DNA from: Betaproteobacteria bacterium
GTDB taxonomy: Bacteria > Pseudomonadota > Gammaproteobacteria > Burkholderiales > Thiobacteraceae
Length of the DNA stretch: 58,917 nt
Assembly: GCA_024641855.1 (NCBI GenBank)
Contig: JAHECG010000010.1
Span: 1 to 58,917 of the forward strand
Direction: 5' to 3'
The position numbers were made by a program, and so were the translations under genes. Shown piece by piece: positions 36,977 to 45,000 of this stretch (position 1 is the stretch's first letter; each line of letters opens with the position of its first letter). The notes below the pieces were generated by a model. It searched no databases. It had not been told where the DNA came from and saw nothing but the letters and a program-made list of their open reading frames with translations.

Positions 36977-37648
36977 TCAGCTGGATCGTGGCAACAGGTC
37001 TGTGAATACAAAACCATCGCGGAGCACGGTTTCTCCCAGCGAAATTTCGACGGGGAATTGAAACATAGGGCCATCGAAGGCAAAGCTATGAAATTCGCCA
37101 TACTCGCCGCACGGGTCAACATCTGCGGGAAGGTCATTCAAAAAAGAGGTGTTGAATTCTCGTCCGGCAAATGATTCCGAAATCTTTTTTGGATCCAAGC
37201 AAGTGATCGCGGCTTTTAAGCCGCTGGCGACCATTGTTCTGGATAGTGTCTTTGTGGGCATGCCCCAAAGTGGGAAGAGGGGCGTGATACCGGTGTCTTT
37301 CAGACGATCTTCACGATACTTCCGAATATCTTCAAGAAATAGATCGCCAAAGGCAAAGCACTGGATATTTTCCTGTTTTGCTTCCGCAACAAAAGCCGTC
37401 ATGATTTCTGCATACGCTTCGTTACTGCAAGGGTAGGGAATGGAAATAATCTGTAGCGGGAGGCCGACATTTTTGGCTTGTTGTAGCAATAGCTCGACTC
37501 GGACGCCATGCATGGCGACACGATCGAAGGCCTGATTCACAGTACAAAATAGGCCGACTACATCCACCTGCGGGTCTTGTCGCAGGGTATGCAGTGCCCA
37601 TGCGCTATCTTTGCCGCTGCTCCACGAAAGAAGGGTTTTTTGAGGCAT
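36977..37648 (-). CDS. PP-loop ATP-binding protein (diphthamide synthetase/MJ0570-like)
   Basis: A 223-residue adenine-nucleotide alpha-hydrolase protein. The PP-loop SSGKDSAW near residues 10-17 starts the domain, LYSR-like strands follow, and the central CFAFGDLFLEDIRKYREDRL segment with GITPLFPLWG is typical of the Dph6/MJ0570-like family, as is CGEYGEFHSFAFDGPMF. Bacteria do not make diphthamide, so the true substrate is unknown; ATP-dependent amidation or thiolation of an acidic group is possible. It is 50 bases from the next gene on the same strand. Confidence 0.88.
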   Translation of the reverse strand: MPQKTLLSWSSGKDSAWALHTLRQDPQVDVVGLFCTVNQAFDRVAMHGVRVELLLQQAKNVGLPLQIISIPYPCSNEAYAEIMTAFVAEAKQENIQCFAFGDLFLEDIRKYREDRLKDTGITPLFPLWGMPTKTLSRTMVASGLKAAITCLDPKKISESFAGREFNTSFLNDLPADVDPCGEYGEFHSFAFDGPMFQFPVEISLGETVLRDGFVFTDLLPRSS

Positions 37649-40008: not shown

Positions 40009-41064
40009 ATGCGGTGCACACAGGCTTTGAATTGCATAATCGCCATGCTTTGCTGCATGGGTGGTGCAGTGGCGGCAGAAAAGCCGGCAGCGCAGGAAGC
40101 GTATACCCCAATTTTTCTGATGTACTCCGGCGAGCCTTCGGCCGAACGCTTGCAAGGTTTGCGGCAATTTTTGGCCGCCAACAATACCCCAAAGCATATT
40201 GTCGCAGACACCTTGGAATCGGTGATTCATAAATTGAACACGTATAAGGCGGGGTTCGCTTTCCCGGTATTTTTCTCCGAAAACAGCAAAGTCGGTAACG
40301 CTTGTGTGGTTGCCGACAGTCATCATAGCCTTAAGGATCCGGTTATCACGCTGATGACGAATCCGTCTATTCATCAATTTGTGATGGGTGGACATACACC
40401 AGCAATGGATGCGCAATCCGTCTTGGATACGGTGCTGCATCATGAGATGTTCCATTGCTATGATTTGTTGCGGCAGACGCAAATTGAAATCGGTGCGCAA
40501 GTCGCCCAGCATGGATCGGCATACTTTTCAAACTGGAGTGAAGTTGGAGCGGACGCCTTTGCGGCGCTCGATCATTTGCGGAATGGCGGCAATAAACAAC
40601 TCATCCGCCAAATCCGTGATTTTCGTACGCTAAATTTGTTGAATGGCGATGCCCTACATTACACCGCGCGCACCTTGGATTACATCGTGTGGCATTACGA
40701 TCAAAAGCGTTTACAAAAGCTCAATATGCAGCAACTGGTGGACTTGGCCTATGCGATTCGCGAACAAACGGCTTTGTCCCCGGAGGAATTCGCTGCTGTT
40801 GAGCAGGTGTCTGGACGTTTTGAGGCGCAGCTAAAGCTCTTGCTTCGCCCCGCGGATAGTGAGTCGAATGCGGCCTGGTTACAAACGCTGCAATACAATG
40901 TCCCCAGCCCTGAATATTTCGCACGCTACATGCTGCAAGTCCGTGCAGCTTTGTATGATTTGGGCGGCGATATTTCCACGGCAAATGCCTATTTCTATCC
41001 CATCATGAAGCAATATGATCGGATCAGGCAATTGCGTGTTGAGCGGGCGGACGCCGCGCACTAA
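40009..41064 (+). CDS. Secreted putative zinc metallopeptidase
   Basis: A 351-residue protein with a signal peptide (Cys-rich core ending Ala-Val-Ala-Ala). The zinc motif HHEMFHC has His145, Glu146 and His149, and the downstream SEVGADAFAAL with Glu178 is a candidate third ligand, a gluzincin-like arrangement. The C-terminal half is helical. An AGGAGG-like GGAGG seven bases before the ATG supports the start at 40009 rather than the upstream GTG. I do not recognise the family. It heads a run of five plus-strand genes that include a radical SAM protein and an ATP-grasp ligase. Confidence 0.75.
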   Translation: MRCTQALNCIIAMLCCMGGAVAAEKPAAQEAYTPIFLMYSGEPSAERLQGLRQFLAANNTPKHIVADTLESVIHKLNTYKAGFAFPVFFSENSKVGNACVVADSHHSLKDPVITLMTNPSIHQFVMGGHTPAMDAQSVLDTVLHHEMFHCYDLLRQTQIEIGAQVAQHGSAYFSNWSEVGADAFAALDHLRNGGNKQLIRQIRDFRTLNLLNGDALHYTARTLDYIVWHYDQKRLQKLNMQQLVDLAYAIREQTALSPEEFAAVEQVSGRFEAQLKLLLRPADSESNAAWLQTLQYNVPSPEYFARYMLQVRAALYDLGGDISTANAYFYPIMKQYDRIRQLRVERADAAH

Positions 41065-41115
41065 TTTCATCTTTGCCCTCTTGCGAGCGCACTGCATTCT
41101 GTCTAGCATGGCGCC

Positions 41116-41658
41116 ATGTCACGCTATTTGATGTTGTTTCTATCCCTCTGGATGTCTCCGCTGTTTGCAGCCGATGCTAAATTGGCACGCGATGGCGTCG
41201 AGTTCTATGTTTCGATTCATACGCCGGAGCAGATGCGTGCATTTTATGGGGCGCGCGGCATGCCCTCAGCTGCCTTGCAGGAAATTGCGAAGGCCTGCTT
41301 CATGACCGTAGGTGTGCGGAACAAGCGTACTGATACGTTGTGGCTGGAACCGGTGACCTGGCGGTTTATGGATGCAAACGGCCAGCCGGTTGCCGCTATT
41401 TCCCGCCAAGCATGGAAGGCGCTGTGGACGAAGTTGCAAGTTCCGCTCGCCGCGCAATCGACTTTCGGTTGGACGCAGTTACCCGAATCACGCGATTTAT
41501 ATCCGGACGAAGCGGTGGGCGGCAACACGACGATTTTGCCGCCGACCGGCAATTTCAGCTTAGTTGCGTATTTTCGTACCGGTGCTAAAGGGGATGGGCC
41601 AACGATTGAATTGACGTTGCCAAATTTATCTTGCGCGCCTAAAGGAGCCGATAAATGA
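41116..41658 (+). CDS. Secreted hypothetical protein
   Basis: A 180-residue protein with a signal peptide (cleavage after Leu-Phe-Ala). Mature sequence is beta-rich with segments VEFYVSIHTPEQMRAFYGARG, CFMTVGVRNKRTDTLWLEPV and a conserved-looking C-terminal NLSCAPKG. It has two cysteines that may form a disulfide. Its stop overlaps the following thioredoxin gene in ATGA, so the two are coupled and the thioredoxin may act on it. Family unknown. Confidence 0.75.
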   Translation: MSRYLMLFLSLWMSPLFAADAKLARDGVEFYVSIHTPEQMRAFYGARGMPSAALQEIAKACFMTVGVRNKRTDTLWLEPVTWRFMDANGQPVAAISRQAWKALWTKLQVPLAAQSTFGWTQLPESRDLYPDEAVGGNTTILPPTGNFSLVAYFRTGAKGDGPTIELTLPNLSCAPKGADK

Positions 41659-42164
41659 AGCGTTGGATCGTTGCATCTGTGCTGTTGTTCGCGACTGCCA
41701 CCGTTTCTGCAGTCGATTTACCGCCAGGGGTGATCACGCTGGATAGCCGCCCGGCACCGGCCTTGAAACTGAGTGATATGGATGGAAAATCCGTAGATCT
41801 CGCACAACGTCGTGGCCATTGGGTGCTGGTGCATTTTTGGGCGACTTGGTGCGGTCCTTGCCGCAAGGAAATGCCGACCTTGGCGCAATTGATGCAAGTC
41901 TTGCCCGCGGAAAAGCTCCAAGTGGTGTTGGTGAACACCGCCGACAGCGAGGATGAAGTGTTTACCTTTTTAGCTTCGGTATCGCCGGATTTGAATACGT
42001 TCCTGGATCGCGATGGCCAAGCGACCGAACGTTGGCAGCCCCGTGGCTTGCCAGCCTCGTTTCTGGTCGATCCACAAGGACGCTTACGCTATATAGTGCT
42101 AGGTGGGCGTAAATGGGCGAGCGAACCCTATTTGGGTTTCTTGAGAGAGTTAACCGCAAAATAA
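41655..42164 (+). CDS. TlpA-type periplasmic thioredoxin-like protein
   Basis: A 169-residue exported thioredoxin with signal peptide ending Thr-Val-Ser-Ala. The redox motif is TWCGPCRKE with Cys66 and Cys69, and the cis-Pro segment is GLPASFLVDPQG. TlpA/ResA proteins reduce disulfides of apocytochrome c or other exported proteins. It starts in the ATGA overlap with the preceding gene. Ninety-two bases separate it from the radical SAM gene. The likely target in this setting is the neighbouring secreted proteins or the window's cytochromes, by inference. Confidence 0.92.
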   Translation: MKRWIVASVLLFATATVSAVDLPPGVITLDSRPAPALKLSDMDGKSVDLAQRRGHWVLVHFWATWCGPCRKEMPTLAQLMQVLPAEKLQVVLVNTADSEDEVFTFLASVSPDLNTFLDRDGQATERWQPRGLPASFLVDPQGRLRYIVLGGRKWASEPYLGFLRELTAK

Positions 42165-42256
42165 ACCGTTGGCATTATTTTTTAGGTGGGTGCGTTTGCT
42201 GCTCAGAAGCAATCCGGGTACCCTTGCCATTCTTAGATTTCCACGTCGTAAAACCC

Positions 42257-43726
42257 ATGTTAGAACAATCGCCGCCACTGGCTGATCAGGGGCATTCTTG
42301 TTGCGGCACCGCGCAGTCGCCAGCAGCAAAATCCTTTAATTTGGTGCTAATCAATCCTTATGAGCTTGGACGGCAGCCGTTTGCTTTGGCCGAGGCCAGC
42401 GCTTGGTTAAAGCGTGCCGGGTATCCGGTGCATTGCCTCGATCTGGCTTTGCAGAAATTGGATCCGACGCTGTTGGCTACGGCCGATGGCGTGGCAATTT
42501 ATTTGGGGATGCATACCGCGACCAGAATCGCGATGGAAGCCTTGCCCCGTATTCGCCAATTGGCGCCCAACGCACAGATGGCCGCCTTTGGTTTGTATGC
42601 GCCGATGAATGCGGATTTATTGCGTGGCTCTGGTGTGTCTGCGATTTTTGGCGGTGAATCGGAGCCGGATTTGGTGGCTTGGGCCAATACACTTTGTACG
42701 GAACCGGGTGTAATCGTTGACCAAGCCACGATTGTGCGTCACGACAAAATCGAATTTTTGCCACCGGATCGCAGTGATTTACCGCAACTGGAACGCTATG
42801 CGCATTTGGTGTTGCCCGATGGCAGCACGCGCGTTGCCGGGTTCGTCGATAGCACGCGCGGTTGCAAGCATGTGTGCCGCCATTGCCCGGTAGTGCCAGT
42901 GTATGAAGGGAAATTTCGCGTGGTGCCGGTGGATATCGTGCTGGGGGATATCGAACAACAAATCGCGGCGGGCGCACGACACATTTCGTTTGGCGATCAC
43001 GACTTTTTCAATGGTCCGACCCATGCGCTAAACGTAGTGCGCGCATTGCATGCGCGTTGGCCGGACGTGAGCTTCGATGCCACGATCAAGATTCAACATT
43101 TACTGGATCATGCGGATTTATTGCCCGAACTCAAGCGCAACAATTGCTTGTTCATTATTGCGGCAGTCGAATCGGTAGATGATCATGTGCTCGGCTATTT
43201 GGCGAAGAATCATACCCGTGCAGATTTTTATCGTGCAGTCGATTTAGTGCGTGCTGCCGGTATTGCGCTGGCGCCGACCTGGGTGGCGTTTCATCCGTGG
43301 ACGACGCTGGAAGCGTATCTCGATTTGCTCAAGAGTCTAGTGGATTTGCGATTAGTGCAGGCCGTGCCGCCGGTACAGTTGTCGATTCGCTTATTGGTTC
43401 CGGCGGGATCCAAACTATTGGAATTGCCTGGATTTACCGATTTGATTAGCCCCTTCGATGCGAAATTATTAGGGTATCCCTGGCGCAATCCAGATGCACG
43501 CGTCGATGCGTTACAGACTGAAATTCAGCAGTCTGTGATGCAAGCAGAGAAAGCCAATACACCGCGCCGAGACGTGTTTGCATCGATTTGGCGTATGGCG
43601 CATGCGGCATTGGGTTTATCGGCACCAGATTTAGACGGCAGCGAACTGGGTTCCGCTGTACCGCACATGTCCGAGCCTTGGTATTGCTGTGCTGAGCCGA
43701 CCGAAGCGCAGCTACAGAACTTTTAA
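42257..43726 (+). CDS. CUAEP/CCAEP-tail radical SAM protein
   Basis: A 489-residue protein with an N-terminal cobalamin-binding-like region (about 25-150) and a radical SAM core. The 4Fe-4S motif C-x3-C-x2-C is Cys203, Cys207 and Cys210 (GCKHVCRHC), followed by RHISFGDHDFFNG, typical of the Gly-containing SAM site. The C-terminus carries Trp-Tyr-Cys-Cys-Ala-Glu-Pro at 475-481, the tail seen in the family named CUAEP/CCAEP-tail radical SAM (seleno)protein; here both positions are ordinary cysteine codons. A second Cys-Cys pair is at 15-16. The ATG at 42257 has no clear ribosome-binding site; an in-frame ATG at 42113, inside the thioredoxin gene, would add 48 residues. An ATP-grasp gene follows. 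Confidence 0.85.
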   Translation: MLEQSPPLADQGHSCCGTAQSPAAKSFNLVLINPYELGRQPFALAEASAWLKRAGYPVHCLDLALQKLDPTLLATADGVAIYLGMHTATRIAMEALPRIRQLAPNAQMAAFGLYAPMNADLLRGSGVSAIFGGESEPDLVAWANTLCTEPGVIVDQATIVRHDKIEFLPPDRSDLPQLERYAHLVLPDGSTRVAGFVDSTRGCKHVCRHCPVVPVYEGKFRVVPVDIVLGDIEQQIAAGARHISFGDHDFFNGPTHALNVVRALHARWPDVSFDATIKIQHLLDHADLLPELKRNNCLFIIAAVESVDDHVLGYLAKNHTRADFYRAVDLVRAAGIALAPTWVAFHPWTTLEAYLDLLKSLVDLRLVQAVPPVQLSIRLLVPAGSKLLELPGFTDLISPFDAKLLGYPWRNPDARVDALQTEIQQSVMQAEKANTPRRDVFASIWRMAHAALGLSAPDLDGSELGSAVPHMSEPWYCCAEPTEAQLQNF

Positions 43727-43749
43727 CGCGGCACGAAAAATTCTCCAAT

Positions 43750-45000
43750 ATGAAATCCATCCTATTACTTCTCCCGGTTTCCAGTTATCGCAACGAAGAC
43801 TTTCTGATTGCCGCTGATAAGCTCGGCGTGCAAGTGATCGCGGTGGCGGATAATTGTCCGCAGTTAGCGCCTGGGTGGGGCATGGGCGCGCTTTCCGCGG
43901 TGCCCTTCGATCAACCTTTGCTGGCTGCACAAACGATTTTAGAAAATTTGTCCGGCAAGCCGAATGCCGTCTTGGCAGTCGATGATCATGGTTTGGAGTT
44001 GGCGGCTTTGCTGCGCGAACAATTGAAATTGGCGGGCAATAGCCCCGCAGTGGTTGGCTTGACCCGCGACAAGCTGGCGTTTCGTCATTTGCTGCAAGAG
44101 CATGGGATGCTGTGTCCGGATTTCATGAGCTTAGCGGATGAGATCGATGCGCATGAACTTGAAGAATTGGCACGCAAACTTAGCTACCCAGTGGTGGTGA
44201 AAGCGCGTCGCTTGTCTGCCAGTCGTGGCGTGGTGCGCGCCAACAATGCGATGGAGTTTATCGGCGCCGTGCGTTGGGTACGTGCCATACAAGCGCGTGC
44301 CGATCGCGAAAGCCAAGAGTTGGGTTTGGTGGTGGAATCTTTCATTGCGGGCCGTGAATATGCGCTGGAAGCGTTGCTGAACGATGGCAAGCTACAAGTC
44401 TTAGCACTATTCGATAAACCGGATCCGCTCAATGGCCCGTATTTTGAAGAGACGATTTATGTCACGCCATCGCATTTGCCGCAAACCGCGCAAACGCAGA
44501 TTACCGAGCAAGTTGAGCGTGCTTGTTGCCTTGCGGGGCTGAGCACGGGCCCAGTGCATGCTGAGATGCGGATCAATGATCGCGGTATTTGGTTGCTGGA
44601 AGTGGCAGCACGTTCCATTGGTGGTCTCTGTGGGCGTATGTTGAAACACGCGCTTGGCATGAGCTTGGAAGAGGTGTTGTTGCGGCATGCTTTAGGAGAG
44701 GCTGTGCCCGATGCTACCGCACGTAACGCTTCAGCTGTGATGATGATCCCGATTCCTAAGCGCGGTATTTATCAGGGCGTAGCGGGGTTGAATGCGGCAT
44801 TGGCCGTGACGCACGTGCAATCGGTTTTGATTACGGCGGAACCCGGTGCGCTGCTGTTGCCGGCACCGGAAGGTGCGAGCTACCTGGGTTTTATCTTCGC
44901 GCAGGCTGACGATCCCGCATCCGCTGAATTGGCATTGCGCCAAGCGCATCGACGCTTGGTGTTCGAGATTCAAACCGAAGTGCCTTTAGCCTTGGCGTAA
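43750..45000 (+). CDS. ATP-grasp ligase beside the radical SAM protein
   Basis: A 416-residue ATP-grasp protein. It has a pre-ATP-grasp region (to about 100) with LLPVSSYRNEDFLIAADKLG, a central ATP-grasp fold with LSYPVVVKARRLSASRGVVR and FIAGREYALEALLNDGKL and a catalytic Mg-binding HAEMRINDRGIWLLEVAARSIGGLCGRML near 265-295. Such enzymes join a carboxylate to an amine or thiol using ATP. The substrate may be connected to the radical SAM enzyme, whose gene ends 23 bases upstream; carboxylate-amine ligases of this type (like those making carnosine or dapdiamide) are the closest class. The tight spacing points to an operon. Confidence 0.9.
   Translation: MKSILLLLPVSSYRNEDFLIAADKLGVQVIAVADNCPQLAPGWGMGALSAVPFDQPLLAAQTILENLSGKPNAVLAVDDHGLELAALLREQLKLAGNSPAVVGLTRDKLAFRHLLQEHGMLCPDFMSLADEIDAHELEELARKLSYPVVVKARRLSASRGVVRANNAMEFIGAVRWVRAIQARADRESQELGLVVESFIAGREYALEALLNDGKLQVLALFDKPDPLNGPYFEETIYVTPSHLPQTAQTQITEQVERACCLAGLSTGPVHAEMRINDRGIWLLEVAARSIGGLCGRMLKHALGMSLEEVLLRHALGEAVPDATARNASAVMMIPIPKRGIYQGVAGLNAALAVTHVQSVLITAEPGALLLPAPEGASYLGFIFAQADDPASAELALRQAHRRLVFEIQTEVPLALA

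What the first reader, a model, noticed from the sequence alone, without database searches (positions are those of the whole stretch)
40009..45000. CCAEP-tail radical SAM + ATP-grasp + thioredoxin cluster of unknown product
Five plus-strand genes in a row encode a secreted HExxH metallopeptidase, a secreted unknown, a TlpA-type thioredoxin coupled to it by ATGA, a B12-like radical SAM protein that ends Trp-Tyr-Cys-Cys-Ala-Glu-Pro, and an ATP-grasp ligase 23 bases later. The tail matches the family I know as CUAEP/CCAEP-tail radical SAM (seleno)protein, whose reaction is, to my knowledge, not described. A redox-active Cys-Cys tail next to a ligase suggests a modified peptide, cofactor or metabolite pathway. 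This is the strongest candidate for an undescribed system.
Basis: partly seen in the sequence, partly recalled or inferred. Interest (0 to 1): 0.78.

Follow-up and report, generated by a model that had tools for sequence, protein, structure and literature searches.

The report
ArsL-like radical enzyme with obligate amino-acid ligase
Two neighbouring genes encode a relative of the enzyme that builds the arsenic antibiotic arsinothricin and a peptide-bond-forming ligase; the two are found together in nearly every genome that has the first, so they probably make an unidentified unusual dipeptide.

Summary
The conserved unit is two genes: the CCAEP-tail radical SAM protein (RS, 42257-43726) and the ATP-grasp protein (AG, 43750-45000). 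RS passes the NCBIfam cut-off for the CUAEP/CCAEP family. [quoted passage not shown] The relation covers the whole chain, and both end in a Cys-Cys tail. AG is an L-amino-acid ligase by profile. AG lies within 1.2 kb of RS in 64 of 80 named loci. In 12 of the other 16 genomes it lies elsewhere; three of the last four loci are cut off just past RS. Relatives without RS lack AG. Several ArsL clusters also carry an ATP-grasp, of another subfamily. I infer that RS makes an unusual ACP-derived amino acid and AG turns it into a dipeptide; the acceptor atom is unknown. Arsenic is possible but unsupported here: almost no ars genes nearby, and no ArsM or ACR3 association. The peptidase, secreted protein and thioredoxin are local neighbours; the last two form a separate cassette.

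The parts
42257..43726 (+). CCAEP-tail radical SAM protein (RS), 489 aa; start set by conservation
   Evidence: NF040546 587 bits over cut-off 500, ArsL model NF040542 second at 232 bits; start conserved; AF2 model pLDDT 89
42863..42886 (+). CxxxCxxC motif for the [4Fe-4S]/SAM cluster (Cys203, Cys207, Cys210)
   Evidence: identical in 66/66 homologues; Radical_SAM PF04055
43685..43690 (+). tandem Cys477-Cys478 of the WYCCAEP tail; the second is encoded by TGA (presumed Sec) in Thermomicrobium roseum
   Evidence: 66/66 conserved; T. roseum reads WFC-TGA-AEP
43750..45000 (+). ATP-grasp protein (AG), L-amino-acid-ligase type, 416 aa
   Evidence: PF13535 and PF18603 LAL_C2 over their gathering scores; best solved relative BL00235 L-amino acid ligase, E 2.9e-52
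41655..42164 (+). TlpA/ResA-like thioredoxin; neighbour, judged not part of the RS/AG unit
   Evidence: occurs with the 41116 gene away from RS in L145 and L146
41116..41658 (+). secreted protein of unknown family; travels with TlpA, judged not part of the RS/AG unit
   Evidence: no family; conserved in its family; found without RS in G052 and unlinked in G037
40009..41064 (+). secreted putative HExxH metallopeptidase; neighbour only
   Evidence: HEMFH invariant; weak PF14891 hit below cut-off; genus-local among the loci examined

Best explanation
RS and AG form a two-enzyme pathway. [quoted passage not shown] Its [4Fe-4S] cluster cleaves SAM so that the 3-amino-3-carboxypropyl group, not the 5'-deoxyadenosyl group, is transferred to a soft acceptor held by the Cys-Cys (or Cys-Sec) tail, giving an unusual alpha-amino acid. 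Step 2 (inferred from family): AG, an L-amino-acid ligase, uses ATP to join that amino acid to a second amino acid. Shown here: the family and whole-length kinship of RS with ArsL, the invariant tail, the ligase family of AG, and an almost obligate RS/AG partnership. Not shown: the reaction, the acceptor atom, the second amino acid and the role in the cell.
For: Kinship: the ArsL model scores 232 bits on RS against 37 for the next family; profile-profile probability 100%, E 1.2e-63, 28% identity over 395 columns; shared ExGxQP, CxxxCxxC, (S/T)FxDxD(F/W) and PW motifs and a C-terminal Cys-Cys. In a tree the T. roseum CUAEP protein groups with ArsL, 88/100. ArsL is reported to transfer ACP to As(III) (PMC8552651; JACS 2024 work cited in PMC12159101). 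Partnership: AG within 1.2 kb of RS in 64/80 loci in three arrangements, 56 of them 5-104 bases downstream; AG elsewhere in 12 of the other 16 genomes; AG in 12 of 13 relatives with RS against 1 of 47 without; RS and AG distance matrices correlate, r 0.83, 0 of 2000 permutations. Ligase: LAL_C2, BL00235 kin. Parallel: ArsL clusters of Alicyclobacillus, Priestia, Pantoea and Klebsiella carry their own ATP-grasp.
Against: RS misses the ArsL cut-off (232 of 450) and its tail is not RCCLKC, so the reaction may have diverged; enzymes about 30% identical can differ in substrate. No ars genes lie near RS in 80 loci except one ArsM-like gene in L074. No structure coordinates were available, so whether the tail reaches the cluster was not tested. 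L112's genome has RS without a convincing AG, and no AG was found on the T. roseum plasmid (its chromosome was not searched). Gene co-occurrence counts are not corrected for phylogeny.
Confidence: 0.5

Rival explanations
1. RS uses ordinary 5'-deoxyadenosyl radical chemistry (hydrogen abstraction) on a small molecule, and the Cys-Cys/Sec tail is a redox or hydrogen-donor element; AG still ligates the product.
For: Most radical SAM enzymes work this way; best solved fold matches are AprD4, MgmA, OxsB, TsrM and MiaB, none of which is an ACP transferase. Cys/Sec swaps are typical of redox residues.
Against: The only close sequence relative is the ACP transferase ArsL, with 100% profile probability over 395 columns, and both families share a C-terminal Cys-Cys.
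Confidence: 0.27
2. The pathway is arsenic-specific: RS makes hydroxyarsinothricin or a close arsenical from As(III), and AG makes a peptide of it, as the ATP-grasp of Priestia or Pantoea arsL clusters might.
For: ArsL kinship; ATP-grasp beside arsL in four genera; another arsenic radical SAM family, TIGR04167 (ArsS by my own recollection of its name), is also a Cys/Sec family (PMC13188914).
Against: No ars genes around RS in 79 of 80 loci; ArsM absent from all RS-bearing relatives at the sensitivity used; ACR3 equally common with and without RS, 6/13 against 22/47, p = 1; in 55/80 loci RS sits by DUF971, in some with ubiE, a housekeeping setting.
Confidence: 0.13
3. The pair makes a metal- or thiol-handling small molecule that serves iron-sulfur homeostasis. 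The iron-sulfur genes around AG in Gammaproteobacteria are its users, not just suppliers of the RS cluster.
For: Unlinked AG lies beside an ErpA-like A-type carrier and a second YggX in several gammaproteobacterial genomes (the two YggX copies are 45-46% identical); YggX near RS in 18 loci.
Against: The carrier may simply load the RS cluster; Betaproteobacteria, including this genome, lack this setting; no metal-binding product is known.
Confidence: 0.07
4. One reading: peptidase, secreted protein, thioredoxin, RS and AG act together.
For: Order kept in the window's genus, and partly in the sister genus.
Against: RS/AG occur without the other three beside them in all other families examined; secreted protein plus TlpA occur without or away from RS in G052 and G037.
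Confidence: 0.03

Closest known systems
CUAEP/CCAEP-tail radical SAM (seleno)protein, NCBIfam NF040546
   Same: Full-length match over the curated cut-off; CxxxCxxC and WYCCAEP tail
   Different: Nothing; RS is a member. The family name states no reaction; its ArsL kinship and ATP-grasp partner are what this report adds
ArsL, arsinothricin biosynthesis radical SAM protein, NCBIfam NF040542
   Same: Whole-length homology, shared motifs, C-terminal Cys-Cys; some clusters also have an ATP-grasp
   Different: Below the ArsL cut-off; tail CCAEP instead of RCCLKC; about 40 extra residues before the tail; no ars operon
L-amino acid ligases: BL00235 (3vot), BacD, LAL_C2 family PF18603
   Same: ATP-grasp_4 plus LAL_C2 domains; BL00235 is the best solved relative
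   Different: Own subfamily; only 17-24% identical to the ATP-grasps of ArsL clusters; substrate unknown
ArsS-type radical SAM protein, TIGR04167
   Same: A radical SAM family listed with Sec variants; linked to arsenosugars by my recollection of its name
   Different: Not detected as a relative of RS by sequence; 5'-deoxyadenosyl transfer chemistry (PMC12159101)

Membership tests
CUAEP/CCAEP-tail radical SAM family NF040546 | Score over the curated cut-off of 500 bits along the full profile | tested here: met
   587.2 bits, profile 2-467 of 468
CUAEP/CCAEP-tail radical SAM family NF040546 | C-terminal C[CU]AEP tail | tested here: met
   WYCCAEP at 43679-43699; CC in 66/66, Sec form in T. roseum
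ArsL NF040542 | Score over the curated cut-off of 450 bits | tested here: not met
   232.2 bits
ArsL NF040542 | RCCLKC tail | tested here: not met
   YCCAEP instead; the Cys-Cys pair aligns
ArsL NF040542 | Arsenic operon with arsM and export gene | tested here: not met
   No ars genes at the locus; ArsM absent from RS-bearing relatives at E <= 1e-15
ArsL NF040542 | ACP transfer from SAM to As(III) | not testable with these tools
   Needs enzyme assay
L-amino acid ligase (ATP-grasp_4 + LAL_C2) | PF13535 and PF18603 over gathering scores | tested here: met
   101.6 and 51.6 bits against 27 and 29.4
L-amino acid ligase (ATP-grasp_4 + LAL_C2) | ATP-dependent dipeptide formation | not testable with these tools
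   Needs enzyme assay
Cobalamin-dependent radical SAM | DxHxxG cobalamin motif in the N-terminal domain | tested here: not met
   0 of 66 sequences; some cobalamin enzymes lack it, so binding itself is untested

The most novel reading that the evidence does not exclude
A widespread, chromosomally settled pathway in chemolithotrophic and groundwater bacteria makes a peptide around an amino acid with a carbon-metalloid or carbon-selenium bond (or another unusual ACP adduct), built by an ArsL-type enzyme whose Cys/Sec tail presents the acceptor. This would extend ACP radical chemistry beyond diphthamide and arsinothricin.
Probability: 0.2. Interest if true: 0.85.

Novelty: new variant of a known kind. 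Interest (0 to 1): 0.62.

Why it matters
At least 524 relatives of RS turned up among genomes of 84,980 bacterial and archaeal species, including culturable Thiobacillus and Sulfuriferula, yet the family has a name but no reaction. Tying it to ArsL and to one obligate ligase turns an unknown into a two-enzyme problem with a stated first assay. Only two ACP-transferring radical SAM systems (diphthamide, arsinothricin) are named in the papers read here.

Tried and rejected
1) Five-gene system: rejected. 2) DUF971 as a dedicated third partner: it lies upstream of RS in 55/80 loci, but it is a general gene present with or without RS, sole copy in most genomes tested, and in some loci ubiE sits between; read as a shared location. 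3) Arsenic resistance association: ACR3 not enriched, ArsM absent. 4) RiPP maturation: no room for a precursor gene between RS and AG in most loci (5-104 bases), and AG is an amino-acid ligase. 5) AG and the ATP-grasps of ArsL clusters as close sisters: rejected, 17-24% identity; the pairing looks independent, or very old. 6) Viral contigs: no relatives. 7) Sampling Pseudomonadota evenly gave only the window itself beside 397 genomes, so the family is rare and patchy. 8) Distance of the tail from the cluster in the AF2 model: coordinates not available. 9) Papers: no text with CUAEP or RCCLKC; two selenoprotein papers by Haft and colleagues that may mention the family are not held. 10) genome search could not be centred on other phyla, so Sec forms beyond T. 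roseum were not surveyed.

Full report
OBSERVATION. The five + strand ORFs exist. The TlpA gene starts at 41655 within the stop of the secreted-protein gene (ATGA). The ATP-grasp gene starts 23 bases after the radical SAM stop. The radical SAM start is 42257, because the N-terminus MLEQSPP is conserved in the genus while the upstream frame is not. The window lies on contig G000:C146 of a 3.19 Mb, 182-contig genome in which RS is single copy.

WHAT RS IS. RS scores 587 bits on NF040546 (cut-off 500) and 232 on NF040542, ArsL; the next family has 37 bits. Profile-profile comparison of 66 CCAEP proteins with 7 ArsL proteins gives probability 100%, E 1.2e-63, 28% identity over 395 columns, that is all of ArsL except its tail. 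Both families end in a Cys-Cys tail: YCCAEP in RS and RCCLKC in ArsL. Cys477 and Cys478 are identical in 66 of 66. In Thermomicrobium roseum the second is a TGA, WFC-TGA-AEP, and the annotated gene stops there; I read it as Sec by analogy with the family name. In a tree, ArsL is one clade and the T. roseum CUAEP protein joins it with 88/100; the outgroups are very long and the root is unsure. The AF2 model is good (pLDDT 89) and resembles AprD4, MgmA, OxsB, TsrM and MiaB. DxHxxG is absent in the N-terminal 200 residues of all 66.

WHAT AG IS. ATP-grasp_4 plus LAL_C2. Best solved relative: L-amino acid ligase BL00235, E 2.9e-52. It is not in a named NCBIfam equivalog.

THE PARTNERSHIP. A scan of genome contigs gave 524 relatives; the best 80 were read. 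AG lies within 1.2 kb of RS in 64: downstream on the same strand in 59 (56 at 5-104 bases), upstream on the same strand in 2, divergent in 3. The changed arrangements argue for selection on proximity, not mere descent. Of the 16 loci without a near AG, 12 genomes carry one elsewhere: ten of eleven (E <= 1e-111), G638, and G042, whose RS contig is the same as L106. In G629 it is on the same contig some 13 kb away. Of the remaining four, L047, L057 and L060 are cut off by the contig end 351, 46 and 5 bases after RS, where AG would be expected. Only L112 lacks AG despite room. Among 60 relatives, AG at E <= 1e-50 is in 12 of 13 with RS (the exception G004 has an RS fragment at a contig end) and in 1 of 47 without (G001, 66% complete) (Fisher on a similar table that also counts the window's genome p 3e-11, not corrected for phylogeny). 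RS and AG distances correlate at r 0.83 over 59 loci, no permutation of 2000 as high; shared descent contributes to this.

THE OTHER NEIGHBOURS. Peptidase, secreted protein and TlpA adjoin RS only in the window's family. The secreted protein and TlpA form their own two-gene cassette, seen without RS in G052 and on another contig in G037. DUF971 (PF06155) is upstream of RS in 55/80 loci, sometimes with ubiE between; it is a general gene, sole copy in most tested genomes. Where AG is unlinked in Gammaproteobacteria it mostly lies by an ErpA-like A-type iron-sulfur carrier and a YggX gene; in three genomes this YggX is a second paralogue, 45-46% identical to the one near RS.

THE PARALLEL IN ARSL CLUSTERS. 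Plasmid arsL clusters of Alicyclobacillus, Priestia, Pantoea and Klebsiella contain an ATP-grasp gene, with a CobW-type GTPase, aquaporin or MFS exporter, mostly arsM, and in several ArsN1. The B. gladioli paper describes only arsQML, and mentions no ATP-grasp. These ATP-grasps are also of the amino-acid-ligase superfamily but only 17-24% identical to AG. So both sister radical SAM families have acquired, apparently separately, a ligase partner.

HOW IT PROBABLY WORKS. ArsL breaks SAM to give the ACP group, which bonds to As(III) and gives an amino acid, hydroxyarsinothricin (PMC8552651; PMC12159101). By homology, RS should make an ACP-derived amino acid from an acceptor that its tail holds. 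An amino-acid ligase is then the natural next enzyme. The chemistry of both steps is inferred. Which acceptor is open: nearly all loci lack ars genes (one ArsM-like gene in L074), RS-bearing relatives lack ArsM, and ACR3 is as common without RS (22/47) as with it (6/13). The settled chromosomal position suggests a core or physiological role rather than an arsenic weapon.

MEMBERSHIP AND NOVELTY. RS is a member of NF040546. It is not a member of ArsL (cut-off, tail and operon not met), but may well work like ArsL. AG is a member of the LAL-type ATP-grasp group by domain. I found no paper on the family, but two likely papers are not held, so the link may have been noted elsewhere. Verdict: new variant of a known kind, interest 0.62.

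Noticed in passing
L128:2439-3671, L129:2480-3703, L130:6626-7831, L131:7766-8830, L132:7584-8789, L133:2738-3961: Plasmid arsL clusters in Alicyclobacillus, Priestia, Pantoea and Klebsiella carry an uncharacterised ATP-grasp ligase, often with a CobW-type GTPase and MFS exporter; they may make a peptidyl form of arsinothricin.
   Followed up: partly
L126:11935-13371: The Thermomicrobium roseum CUAEP gene is annotated to stop at a TGA that aligns with the second tail Cys; reading on gives AEP, so the record is probably truncated at a Sec codon.
   Followed up: yes
L163-L169, L084, L100, L101: In Gammaproteobacteria AG mostly lies next to an ErpA-like iron-sulfur carrier with an unusual CGGCGGGG end and often a divergent YggX gene.
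   Followed up: partly
window 41116-42164; L145:2497-3479; L146:1447-2438: A secreted protein of no known family and a TlpA thioredoxin form a conserved two-gene cassette independent of RS; distant paralogues of the secreted protein exist in the same genomes.
   Followed up: partly
window 36977-37648 (-): A Dph6-like ATP pyrophosphatase (PF01902) about 5 kb upstream of RS; diphthamide also uses ACP chemistry, but the gene was not seen with RS in the other loci examined.
   Followed up: no
L074:183-782: ArsM-like methyltransferase about 2 kb upstream of RS, the only arsenic-type gene found near RS in 80 loci.
   Followed up: no
L048:9396-10058: A DUF169 protein sits between RS and AG in one betaproteobacterial genome; in other loci a small lipoprotein-like gene sits there.
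   Followed up: no
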